A stretch of DNA of 35,039 nucleotides, from contig CANFNX010000012.1 of assembly GCA_947448495.1 (NCBI GenBank), forward strand, positions 1 to 35,039, given 5' to 3'. Positions 22,055 through 23,764 of the stretch are shown here, piece by piece. Below the pieces are notes generated by a model. The model ran no database searches and was not told the origin of the DNA. It was given only the letters and a program-made list of their open reading frames with translations. A program made the translations under genes and the position numbers. The first letter of the stretch is position 1. Each line of letters opens with the position of its first letter. The stretch is from Bacteriovoracaceae bacterium. GTDB taxonomy: Bacteria; Bdellovibrionota; Bacteriovoracia; Bacteriovoracales; Bacteriovoracaceae.

Positions 22055-22489
22055 ATGAAAAACACTCTCATTAAAAATTTCCCGCTCTTTCTCATCTTTG
22101 GTGCCATGGGCATGGCGATGGAAATCTTTTTCACTGCTTTTTACGACATTATCGTTCATCATCAGACAAACGTGGCCCTCAAGGGATTTTCTTACGCCTG
22201 GATGTTACCGATTTATGGAATTGCGGCCTATGCTTTCCCGCCACTGATTGAGAAATTGAAGGCGATCGGCTGGTTGGGAAGAGGACTGGTTTTTGGCGTT
22301 GGCATCTTGATCGTTGAGTATATTGCCGGAGCTTTGCTAAAATCCCTCACTGGGGCCTGTCCCTGGGAGTATAAAGAGGGGTGGCATCTTCACGGCTTTA
22401 TCCGCTTTGATTTTTATCCGCTCTGGACTATCTTTGCCATGGCCGTGGAGAAGCTTCTTCTATGGCTGAAACCTCGGTTGATGCTGTAG
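22055..22489 (+). CDS. Small CmpB-type membrane protein (putative ABC permease family)
   Basis: 144 residues with about four hydrophobic segments: FLIFGAMGMAMEIFFTAFYD, FSYAWMLPIYGIAAYAF, GRGLVFGVGILIVEYIAGALL and FDFYPLWTIFAMAVEKLLLWL. The MEIFFT start, the IVEYIAG segment and the CPWEYKEGWHLHGFIRFDFYPLW stretch fit the family annotated as putative ABC transporter permease CmpB (PF06541). The actual function of that family is poorly known. It stands alone on the plus strand after the tRNA terminator and ends five bases before the convergent membrane protein gene. The ribosome site before ATG 22055 is weak. Confidence 0.7.
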   Translation: MKNTLIKNFPLFLIFGAMGMAMEIFFTAFYDIIVHHQTNVALKGFSYAWMLPIYGIAAYAFPPLIEKLKAIGWLGRGLVFGVGILIVEYIAGALLKSLTGACPWEYKEGWHLHGFIRFDFYPLWTIFAMAVEKLLLWLKPRLML

Positions 22490-22494
22490 ATGAT

Positions 22495-22965
22495 CTAAGA
22501 AAATTTTTTGATTCGCCAAAAGACTTCCAGACCTAAAACAGCACTGAGAACGGCCCCAGTGAGCCATGCCATAAACATCACGAATTGAAATTTAACCCCA
22601 AAAATCATAAAGCAAATGAGTGCGATGGCACCGATAGAGGTAAAAGAGGGTAGTTCTATTTTTCTTAAAACTCGCAGCTCGTCGTGATTGAGTATAAAAA
22701 CAGAAATAACGGATCCAAGCCCTAAAAATATCGCTCCACAGGCGATATTACACGCGAGCTCTCCCCAACTCATCAAGATATGCCCCAGAAAAGAATGCGG
22801 ATTAAAACCGAGGTCGAATTGTGGGCAAATGCTCAGCACGATGAAACTTGCAAAGAATTGAATGATGGCGAGTTTAATAAAAACTCTGATCCATGCAGGT
22901 GAAAGTTTAGACTTTATGTCGGATTGGATTTTCTTTTTTAAATCAAGTGGCATGTGATTATTCAT
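22495..22965 (-). CDS. Four-helix membrane protein, putative anti-sigma partner
   Basis: 156 residues. A short charged cytoplasmic N-terminus (MPLDLKKKIQSDIKSKLSPAW) is followed by four hydrophobic segments at about 27-48, 65-95, 108-126 and 128-148. It starts eight bases after the ECF sigma gene's stop with a good GAGGTAAAAG site, so the two are cotranscribed. ECF factors are usually co-encoded with a membrane anti-sigma factor. This one lacks the zinc-type HxxxCxxC anti-sigma motif. It is reminiscent of NrsF/DUF1109 only in being multi-spanning and sigma-linked, and it is shorter than that family. Four cysteines sit in or near the membrane segments and could sense redox or metals. The anti-sigma role rests on context. 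Confidence 0.55.
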   Translation of the reverse strand: MNNHMPLDLKKKIQSDIKSKLSPAWIRVFIKLAIIQFFASFIVLSICPQFDLGFNPHSFLGHILMSWGELACNIACGAIFLGLGSVISVFILNHDELRVLRKIELPSFTSIGAIALICFMIFGVKFQFVMFMAWLTGAVLSAVLGLEVFWRIKKFS

Positions 22966-22973
22966 CTTTTACC

Positions 22974-23459
22974 TCATTGTTTTTTTCTTAGCAAGCGAAG
23001 GGAGCGGCTGATGATTTGTCTGATATTCGCTGGTGTAGAATTAAGCTTCTTTGCTATTTCTTCAAAACTCATGTCCGCTAGATATTTCATTTCAATAATG
23101 GAACGATTTTTTTTATTCAGTGCGTGAAGGGATTCATCAATATCAATCTCGTTTTTTTCATTCATCAAAAATTCTTTTAGCTCTTCAAGATTGATTTTAG
23201 ACGATTTTCGAAGGTGATCATAAAGAACACTGCGAGCAATCACAAATAACCAGGCATCGAAAGGGTGTTTCGGGTCATATTTTTCTTTTGTTGAGTGAAG
23301 TTTGAAGAAAATATTTTGAGTCACATCTTCGACTTCATTTTTTGAAAAGAGGTGTTTTGAGACATAGGCATAGACTCTTTGATGAATTCTCTCAAATAAT
23401 TCATCAAAGGCGCTGGCATCACCATCAGCATATCGAAGCATGAGTTCTTCGTTCGTCAA
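22974..23459 (-). CDS. ECF-type RNA polymerase sigma factor
   Basis: 161 residues from TTG 23459. Region 2 is DASAFDELFERIHQRVYAYVSKHLFSKNEVEDVTQNIFFKLH...FDAWLFVIARSVLYDHLRK (about 13-85). Region 4 is LNKKNRSIIEMKYLADMSFEEIAKKLNSTPANIRQIISRSLRLLRKK (about 110-158). An in-frame ATG at 23495 gives a longer reading, but a very strong AGGGGGGAGG lies just before TTG 23459. MTNEELMLRYADGD is the typical ECF start, and the longer version would begin upstream of the predicted transcription start. It drives, by inference, its own operon and the divergent cysteine-rich gene. Confidence 0.9.
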   Translation of the reverse strand: MTNEELMLRYADGDASAFDELFERIHQRVYAYVSKHLFSKNEVEDVTQNIFFKLHSTKEKYDPKHPFDAWLFVIARSVLYDHLRKSSKINLEELKEFLMNEKNEIDIDESLHALNKKNRSIIEMKYLADMSFEEIAKKLNSTPANIRQIISRSLRLLRKKQ

Positions 23460-23486
23460 ACGGCCCTCCCCCCTAGCTATATAGTA

Positions 23487-23513
23487 TACGATCATTTTTT
23501 ATAATTTGTGACA
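23487..23513 (-). promoter_or_regulatory. ECF-type promoter of the sigma factor operon
   Basis: Read on the minus strand: -35 element TGTCACA (plus 23507-23513), 16-base spacer, -10 element CGTA (plus 23487-23490). The expected transcript start is about 23478-23481, which leaves room for the ribosome site before TTG 23459. It has the same elements and spacing as the plus-strand promoter next to it. Confidence 0.7.
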
Positions 23514-23525
23514 AGGTTGTCACAA
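23506..23525. repeat. Perfect inverted repeat shared by two divergent ECF promoters
   Basis: TTGTGACAA (23506-23514) and TTGTCACAA (23517-23525) are exact reverse complements separated by GG. Each arm contains the -35 element of one of the two divergent promoters. It could also serve as a dimeric operator. Confidence 0.85.
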
Positions 23526-23544
23526 AAGCCTCATCTTATGCGTA
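23518..23544 (+). promoter_or_regulatory. ECF-type promoter of the cysteine-rich peptide gene
   Basis: TGTCACA (23518-23524), 16-base spacer, CGTA (23541-23544). The predicted start is about 23551, ahead of AAAGGAGG and ATG 23576. Identical spacing to the divergent copy strongly suggests recognition by the same sigma factor. Confidence 0.7.
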
Positions 23545-23575
23545 TTCCTTGATGAGGTTAATAAAGGAGGACTTT

Positions 23576-23764
23576 ATGTCAAAATTAGCTACATTTTCAT
23601 TACTTATGGCGCTTGCTGCTCCAGTGGCCTTCGCGACAGAACATCAGAACGAAAAAGAAAAATGTTCTTGCTCGAAAGAATGCAAAGAAAAGTGCCAAAA
23701 AGGGAAATCAGAAGACTGTCAGTGCAAGGAATGCGATTGTAAAAAAAGTCATCAGTGCCATTAA
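23576..23764 (+). CDS. Small exported cysteine-rich (metallothionein-like) peptide
   Basis: 62 residues from ATG 23576, chosen because AAAGGAGG lies five to six bases upstream and it gives a clean signal peptide (MSKLATFSLLMALAAPVAFA, cleavage after AFA). The mature peptide of about 42 residues has nine cysteines in CxC and CxxxC arrangements (KCSCSKECKEKC, DCQCKECDC, ending CH), with many Lys and Glu and two His. This suggests metal binding in the periplasm or outside the cell. It is not a recognised metallothionein family. DUF2282 peptides (bufferins) controlled by ECF factors in Caulobacter are a functional analogue only. The stop codon overlaps the convergent alkD-like stop at a shared TTAA. 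Regulation by the divergent ECF factor is inferred from the mirrored promoter. Confidence 0.78.
   Translation: MSKLATFSLLMALAAPVAFATEHQNEKEKCSCSKECKEKCQKGKSEDCQCKECDCKKSHQCH

What the first reader, a model, noticed from the sequence alone, without database searches (positions are those of the whole stretch)
23459..23576. Mirror-image ECF promoters built on one inverted repeat
Between the sigma factor operon (minus) and a tiny exported Cys-rich gene (plus) there is TGTCACA-N16-CGTA on both strands, with identical spacing. Their -35 elements are the two arms of a perfect 9+2+9 inverted repeat. CGTA-type -10 elements are usual for ECF sigma factors. This predicts that the sigma factor drives both itself and the peptide gene from mutually exclusive, face-away promoters. 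It also moves the sigma start from ATG 23495 to TTG 23459, which follows a strong ribosome site.
Basis: partly seen in the sequence, partly recalled or inferred. Interest (0 to 1): 0.8.

Follow-up and report, generated by a model that had tools for sequence, protein, structure and literature searches.

The report
Paired promoters of a metal-stress sigma
A probable copper-stress switch in a likely relative of Bdellovibrio bacteria appears to drive its own gene and a tiny exported Cys-rich peptide from two back-to-back promoters, an arrangement that recurs in related genomes.

Summary
TGTCACA-N16-CGTA occurs on both strands (23518-23544 +, 23513-23487 -); its -35 elements are the arms of a 10+2+10 inverted repeat. 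They are 2 of 3 exact matches (N15-17) in the 2.85-Mb assembly. Comparison makes the case. In 137 upstream regions of related sigma/anti-sigma operons, GTCAC[AG]-N15-17-CGT points to sigma in 99, divergently in 76, both ways in 75; base shuffles predict 0.7, 0.5 and 0.0. The two -35s abut (0-4 bases apart) in 21 of 75, interlock in 6 (one clade), and lie 46 or more bases apart in 37. The tree needs 13 changes of the abutting state, at least 7 across well-supported branches. So the inverted repeat is two extended -35s back to back, not an obligatory operator. All 16 Cys-rich genes found divergently beside a sigma carry the motif, 5 of them seeds. The predicted anti-sigma is a membrane protein with CPQ and CxxxC signatures and no Pfam family. 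Other motif-borne genes include a multicopper oxidase, a CusB-type adaptor and OEP proteins, suggesting copper or silver. TTG 23459 is supported. Mutual exclusion rests on geometry alone.

The parts
23487..23513 (-). Sigma-operon promoter: TGTCACA (-35) N16 CGTA (-10)
   Evidence: the same motif toward sigma in 99 of 137 homologous upstream regions (relaxed form)
23518..23544 (+). Divergent promoter of the Cys-rich gene: TGTCACA N16 CGTA
   Evidence: divergent motif in 76 of 137; in 16 of 16 Cys-rich genes found divergently beside a sigma
23505..23526 (.). Inverted repeat TTTGTGACAA-GG-TTGTCACAAA formed by the two extended -35 elements
   Evidence: extended consensus (T)TGTCACAAA from 114 sites
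22974..23459 (-). ECF sigma factor, 161 aa from TTG 23459; ribosome site 23473-23464
   Evidence: Pfam Sigma70_r2 and r4 above cut-off; N-terminus aligns by eye with L027 MSDEELM
22495..22965 (-). Membrane protein, predicted anti-sigma factor, 156 aa, about four TM helices, CPQF and CxxxCG signatures
   Evidence: 139 of 145 family members held lie directly after a sigma gene; no Pfam family above cut-off
23576..23764 (+). Exported Cys-rich peptide, 62 aa, 9 Cys; ribosome site AAAGGAGG 23563-23570
   Evidence: export inferred from the hydrophobic N-terminus

Best explanation
This is a self-amplifying envelope metal-stress module, most likely for Cu(I) or Ag(I). The sigma is held at the inner membrane by the four-helix protein encoded directly after it. 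That protein's three near-invariant cysteines (CPQ at the outer end of helix 1, CxxxC at the start of helix 2) bind the metal or are oxidised on the periplasmic side, and this releases the sigma. RNA polymerase with the sigma then fires two promoters of the same sequence that face away from each other: one for the sigma/anti-sigma operon (feedback) and one for the exported Cys-rich peptide, which soaks up the metal. In this genome the two -35 elements abut, so one polymerase should occlude the other. Shown here: the motif, its pairing, its conservation and repeated abutting arrangement, the gene order and the Cys signatures. Inferred: the sigma recognises this motif; the membrane protein inhibits the sigma; its topology; the metal is copper or silver; the peptide is exported and binds metal; polymerases exclude each other.
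For: Relaxed motif toward sigma 99, divergent 76, both 75 of 137; base-shuffle expectation 0.7, 0.5, 0.0; reversed pattern 2 and 0. Strict motif 70, 57 and 47 of 137. Bases not imposed by the search are conserved: A at the two positions after TGTCACA in 85% and 78%, last base of CGTN is A in 94% of 114 strict N16 sites. Spacer is 16 in 85 of 99 and 61 of 76 sites. 139 of 145 anti-sigma ORFs follow a sigma ORF. CxQ[FYW] in 133 of 142 and CxxxC[GAS] in 142 of 142; 8 of the other 9 have CPQL or CPQM, one has CPH. Motif upstream of 22 of 28 Cys-rich ORFs, including 16 of 16 divergent beside a sigma. In relatives the motif stands before a multicopper oxidase (L035, about 5 kb from that genome's anti-sigma gene on the same contig), a CusB-type adaptor with heavy-metal domain (L167) and OEP outer-membrane efflux proteins (5 of the 13 divergent partners scanned).
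Against: No expression or binding data. 38 of 137 sigma upstream regions lack even the relaxed motif toward sigma (37 have none either way). In this genome no further regulon members stand out, and over 58 relatives the single motif has only 44 matches against 25 reversed, so an isolated motif-borne gene can be chance. Six of 13 scanned divergent partners match no Pfam family. Five Cys-rich seeds were themselves found beside the motif; of the other 23, 17 have it, and 11 of 11 beside a sigma. The AlphaFold model of the anti-sigma is too weak to use (mean pLDDT 57.9). Copper is inferred from partners in other genomes.
Confidence: 0.77

Rival explanations
1. The inverted repeat is the operator of a separate dimeric regulator (for example a repressor) that controls both genes, and the CGTA elements are incidental.
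For: A perfect 22-bp inverted repeat between divergent genes; abutting repeats recur in 21 of 75 paired loci and some are perfect palindromes (TTTTTGTGACCGGTCACAAAAA in L125).
Against: The distance between the two half-sites ranges from -25 to 185 and 37 of 75 have them 46 or more bases apart; 24 of 137 sigma regions have only a sigma-directed copy; CGT lies at a spacing of 16 in most sites and the last A of CGTA was not imposed by the search. No other DNA-binding regulator is among the five genes scanned at the locus.
Confidence: 0.07
2. Both promoters are recognised by the sigma, but the abutting arrangement has no function: it is intergenic compaction, and both promoters fire independently at normal rates.
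For: Gaps vary widely and many relatives use well separated promoters. Label clustering on the tree shows part of the repetition is inheritance.
Against: Gaps of 0-4 hold 21 of 75 loci while gaps of 5-45 hold 11; the abutting state needs 13 changes on the tree, at least 7 across well-supported branches, though some may be losses. Under a uniform gap of 0-90 the strict set (9 of the 44 loci with gaps up to 90) has a probability of about 0.0006, and 4 of 13 lineages about 0.004 (the lineage numbers are my estimate).
Confidence: 0.35
3. The module answers another envelope thiol stress (oxidants, or other soft metals such as cadmium, zinc or mercury) rather than copper or silver.
For: Cys signatures alone do not name the ligand; Caulobacter SigF/NrsF responds to chromium and cadmium as well as copper (PMC3511200, PMC8224329, passages read).
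Against: Motif-borne multicopper oxidase (best NCBIfam hit copper_res_A, 291.5 bits, below its cut-off of 478.95) and CusB-type adaptor with heavy-metal-binding domain.
Confidence: 0.25

Closest known systems
Caulobacter SigF/NrsF with its DUF2282 protein operon (PMC3511200, PMC8224329; passages read)
   Same: ECF sigma with a co-operonic polytopic membrane inhibitor bearing conserved cysteines thought to face the periplasm; the sigma drives its own operon and a neighbouring operon that begins with a small DUF2282 protein; needed for copper tolerance.
   Different: Its promoter is GTAACC-N16-CGAA; NrsF is DUF1109 with six TM segments and two conserved Cys. None of the 20 anti-sigma members scanned matches DUF1109, and the window peptide matches no family above cut-off.
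ECF41 sigma factors (PMC3426412; passages read)
   Same: -35 element TGTCACA with a 16-nt spacer.
   Different: ECF41 has CGTC at -10, a fused C-terminal regulatory domain and COE target genes. The window sigma has only regions 2 and 4 and uses CGTA. The paper calls the -35 consensus specific for group ECF41; these loci suggest it is not.
Myxococcus CorE/CorE2 (PMC8999054, PMC10141476; passages read)
   Same: ECF sigma factors for copper or cadmium/zinc; CorE targets include a multicopper oxidase and a copper ATPase.
   Different: CorE senses metal with its own Cys-rich C-terminal domain; the window sigma has no cysteine at all and has a membrane partner.
Overlapping divergent promoters of plasmid pLS20 (PMC4207663; search listing and start of abstract only)
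   Same: Overlapping divergent promoters forming a genetic switch.
   Different: The title names DNA looping as part of that switch; here the promoters are alike in sequence and the ECF sigma is the only regulator seen.

Membership tests
ECF (group 4) sigma factor | sigma regions 2 and 4 only | tested here: met
   Sigma70_r2 and Sigma70_r4_2/r4 above cut-off, 161 aa
ECF (group 4) sigma factor | anti-sigma gene in the same operon | tested here: inconclusive
   Gene order fits: 139 of 145 family members held directly follow a sigma ORF; inhibition of the sigma not tested
ECF (group 4) sigma factor | positive autoregulation through a CGT-type -10 | tested here: inconclusive
   Motif conserved in front of sigma in 99 of 137; transcription not testable here
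ECF41 | TGTCACA-N16-CGTC promoter | tested here: not met
   -35 identical, but last base of -10 is A in 94% of 114 strict sites
ECF41 | C-terminal regulatory extension (SnoaL-like) | tested here: not met
   No domain beyond region 4; the match ends 2-4 residues before the end of the protein
SigF/NrsF | DUF1109 anti-sigma | tested here: not met
   0 of 20 family members match it at E up to 0.01
SigF/NrsF | GTAACC-N16-CGAA promoter | tested here: not met
   TGTCACA-N16-CGTA instead
CorE-like sigma factor | Cys-rich C-terminal domain and CxC in the linker | tested here: not met
   No cysteine in the window sigma
Metallothionein-like metal-binding peptide | binds soft metals through clustered Cys | not testable with these tools
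   Nine Cys; seven Cys columns invariant in 5 rows; no family above cut-off, one of 5 members E 0.008 to Metallothio_Euk

The most novel reading that the evidence does not exclude
Across this phylum an ECF sigma/anti-sigma family with a membrane metal sensor that has no Pfam name (CPQ and CxxxC) has repeatedly evolved symmetric promoter pairs: abutting and, in one clade, interlocked so that each strand's -10 overlaps the other's -35. Such a pair can hold only one polymerase at a time, so each initiation is a choice between making more regulator and making the detoxifying product. This would limit the positive feedback and tie regulator and target output together without any repressor.
Probability: 0.35. 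Interest if true: 0.75.

Novelty: new variant of a known kind. Interest (0 to 1): 0.58.

Why it matters
It gives a testable promoter code for a sigma/anti-sigma family whose membrane partner is found in 136 of 240 sampled genomes of the phylum. It adds a candidate class of membrane metal-sensing anti-sigma factors without a Pfam name and a family of exported Cys-rich peptides. It also shows that paired promoters of one sequence can take separated, abutting or interlocked forms, a natural series for asking how one polymerase at a time shapes positive feedback.

Tried and rejected
Helical phasing of the gap between the promoters: an apparent 10.5-bp signal (0.34 against a null of about 0.15) disappears when only distinct gaps are used (0.12 against 0.18). 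Rejected.

Promoter-like matches in front of the anti-sigma gene in relatives L016, L017, L019, L021, L023 and L024: in 6 of 6 the match lies inside the sigma gene and encodes the region-4 helix (..GLSQxNLRQRLSRA.. or close). Coding coincidence, rejected.

CRP-like site: the repeat has TGTGA-N8-TCACA whereas the recalled CRP consensus has N6; not pursued. A housekeeping sigma-70 promoter: 5 sites found against 3.1 expected (sd 1.9); not convincing.

Structure of the anti-sigma: model too weak (mean pLDDT 57.9, two sequences in the alignment), so no fold search was run. No solved relative by sequence.

Weak database hits treated as chance: Adeno_E3_14_5, DUF5325, NEMP and THH1, one anti-sigma member each; PsbZ, Ycf9, DUF6520, mini-MOMP and Shiga B-subunit models, one Cys-rich member each, probably signal-peptide resemblance. 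The partner in L052 reminded me of DUF3347, but Pfam gave no family (NCBIfam gave LIC13259/LIC11441 below its cut-off), so I dropped that name.

Literature: ten searches. Of those aimed at Bdellovibrio none listed a paper on copper-responsive ECF sigmas in that group. The library is open-access only.

Full report
What is there. Between the sigma gene (minus) and a small gene (plus), TGTCACA-N16-CGTA occurs on both strands at 23518-23544 (+) and 23513-23487 (-). The 117-nt intergenic region, base-shuffled 200,000 times, gave the motif on the plus strand 13 times and on both strands never. In the 2.85-Mb assembly (202 contigs, 86.6% complete) the pattern with N15-17 has 3 matches, these two and one more; its reversed form has 4. 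With N16 and one mismatch it has 16 against 14 reversed. So the pair stands out, single sites do not, and no further regulon member is evident in this genome.

The genes. The minus-strand gene is an ECF sigma (Sigma70_r2 and r4 above cut-off). The ATG at 23495 lies upstream of the -10 element and has no evident ribosome site. TTG 23459 follows GGGGGGAGGG and aligns by eye with the ATG of L027 (MSDEELM), so the start correction is sound. Directly after it comes a 156-aa membrane protein. The plus gene encodes a 62-aa peptide with a hydrophobic, signal-like N-terminus and nine cysteines.

Related loci. A profile of the membrane protein (A2, 20 relatives chosen by position after a related sigma, not by motif) matches 136 of 240 sampled genomes of the phylum. 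The phylum is probably Bdellovibrionota: the two best of five named hits to the sigma are Bdellovibrionales MAGs. I fetched 100 further loci, not every match. Among all loci held, 145 anti-sigma ORFs distinct in their last 120 residues were found, 139 with a sigma ORF immediately upstream. Two of these proved to be duplicates and were dropped, leaving 137 upstream regions.

Conservation of the promoters. The strict motif TGTCACA-N15-17-CGTN points to sigma in 70, divergently in 57 and both ways in 47 of 137. Before the two duplicates were dropped, dinucleotide shuffles gave 0.3, 0.1 and 0.0 and the reversed pattern 0 and 0. Some bases were left free by the search and are also conserved: A at the two positions after TGTCACA (85% and 78%) and the last A of CGTA (94%) in 114 N16 sites. 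Regions without the strict motif showed that the first T is dispensable. With GTCAC[AG]-N15-17-CGTN within 300 nt the numbers are 99, 76 and 75 of 137, against 0.7, 0.5 and 0.0 by base shuffle and 2 and 0 for the reversed pattern. Twenty-four have a sigma-directed copy only, one a divergent copy only, and 37 none. Outside this context the motif is weak evidence: in 58 relatives TGTCACAA-N14-15-CGTA has 44 matches against 25 reversed.

Architecture. The distance between the two -35 elements falls into classes. It is -25 in 6 loci, an interlocked palindrome in which each strand's -10 overlaps the other's -35 by a base (for example TATACGTCACAAATTACGGTTTTGTGACGTATAC in L175). It is 0-4 in 21 loci (this window: 4), 5-45 in 11, and 46 or more in 37. 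On a tree of 75 sigma plus anti-sigma pairs (quick method, SH-aLRT support, 21 of 72 inner branches unresolved) the abutting class needs 13 changes, at least 7 across well-supported branches; some may be losses. The interlocked class is one clade. A careful tree of the 47 strict loci gave 6 changes for 9 abutting rows, at least 4 forced. The abutting inverted repeat is therefore a recurrent arrangement but not a required one. The repeat arms are what two extended -35 elements (T)TGTCACAAA placed back to back would give, so no separate operator is needed to explain them. A 10.5-bp phasing of gaps did not survive removal of repeated values.

Exclusion. With start sites about 70 bp apart (my estimate from the -10 positions), two polymerases, each covering roughly 40-55 bp upstream of its start (recalled), should not fit at once in the abutting and interlocked classes, whereas those 46 or more bases apart could. 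This is geometry, not a result.

What is driven. The Cys-rich profile A1 (5 seeds) matches 22 of 240 genomes. Of 28 distinct Cys-rich ORFs held (a few are fragments or have little upstream sequence), 22 have the relaxed motif within 220 nt; all 16 that lie divergently within 260 nt of a sigma have it. The five seeds were found beside the motif and are among the 16; of the remaining 23, 17 have it, 11 of 11 beside a sigma. Thirteen divergent partners, chosen by me from the list, were scanned with Pfam: five are OEP outer-membrane efflux proteins, one a CusB-type adaptor with a heavy-metal-binding domain, one a haem-binding protein, six match nothing. Of four genes behind motif copies that are not next to a sigma, one is a multicopper oxidase, one resembles YHS below its cut-off, two match nothing. 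The oxidase (L035, genome G015) had seemed to be in a genome without a related sigma, since G015 gave no match at E 1e-20; a check found the anti-sigma gene on the same contig, about 5 kb away. NCBIfam names copper_res_A best for the oxidase, below its cut-off. This points to copper or silver, though partners in other genomes are indirect evidence.

The anti-sigma candidate. In 20 relatives C47, Q49, C72, C76 and G77 (window numbering) are invariant. Over 142 ORFs of at least 140 aa, CxQ[FYW] is present in 133 and CxxxC[GAS] in all; eight of the other nine have CPQL or CPQM and one has CPH. Hydropathy suggests about four helices with no K or R in the first outer loop and K/R in the inner parts, which would put these cysteines at the outer face. 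None of the 20 members matches a Pfam family above E 0.0006 in significance, single chance-like hits aside, and none matches DUF1109; NCBIfam was tried for the window member only. No solved relative was found. The structure model was too weak to use.

Comparison. Caulobacter SigF/NrsF is what this works like: a membrane inhibitor with conserved cysteines, a sigma that drives its own operon and a neighbouring small-protein operon, and a role in copper tolerance (PMC3511200, PMC8224329; passages). It is not a member: promoter, anti-sigma family and peptide family all differ. ECF41 shares the -35 TGTCACA and the spacer (PMC3426412, passages) but not the -10 or the fused domain. CorE senses metal through its own cysteines (PMC8999054, passages), which this sigma lacks.

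Verdict. The finding is correct and better supported than its reader could know. The module type is known; the sensor family, the peptide family and the series of paired-promoter geometries did not appear in ten searches of an open-access library, which is not proof that they are undescribed.

Noticed in passing
L175, L176, L179, L190, L192, L199 (upstream of sigma): Interlocked, nearly palindromic promoter pairs in which the -10 of each strand overlaps the -35 of the other.
   Followed up: partly
L012, L080, L125, L152, L154, L166, L174, L175, L177, L182 (divergent partners): A signal-bearing family of about 210-220 aa beginning HPV..KG or similar, without Pfam match in the two members scanned (L080, L166), repeatedly the divergent partner of these sigmas.
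   Followed up: no
window 23529-23535 and 23551-23557: A second small inverted repeat (CCTCATC / GATGAGG) spans the spacer and start region of the plus promoter; may be chance.
   Followed up: no
   Followed up: no
L070, L071, L072, L074, L077, L116, L143, L144 (divergent partners): Small proteins with a CFDCH or CLQCH motif as sigma partners; the one scanned, L070, matches Haem_bd.
   Followed up: no
L100, L073: Cys-rich genes that carry the motif without a sigma gene divergently beside them in the stretch held; L073's lies beyond the far end of a sigma/anti-sigma operon.
   Followed up: partly
window 22055-22489 (+): Small membrane protein matching ABC_trans_CmpB (PF06541), convergent with the anti-sigma gene.
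   Followed up: no
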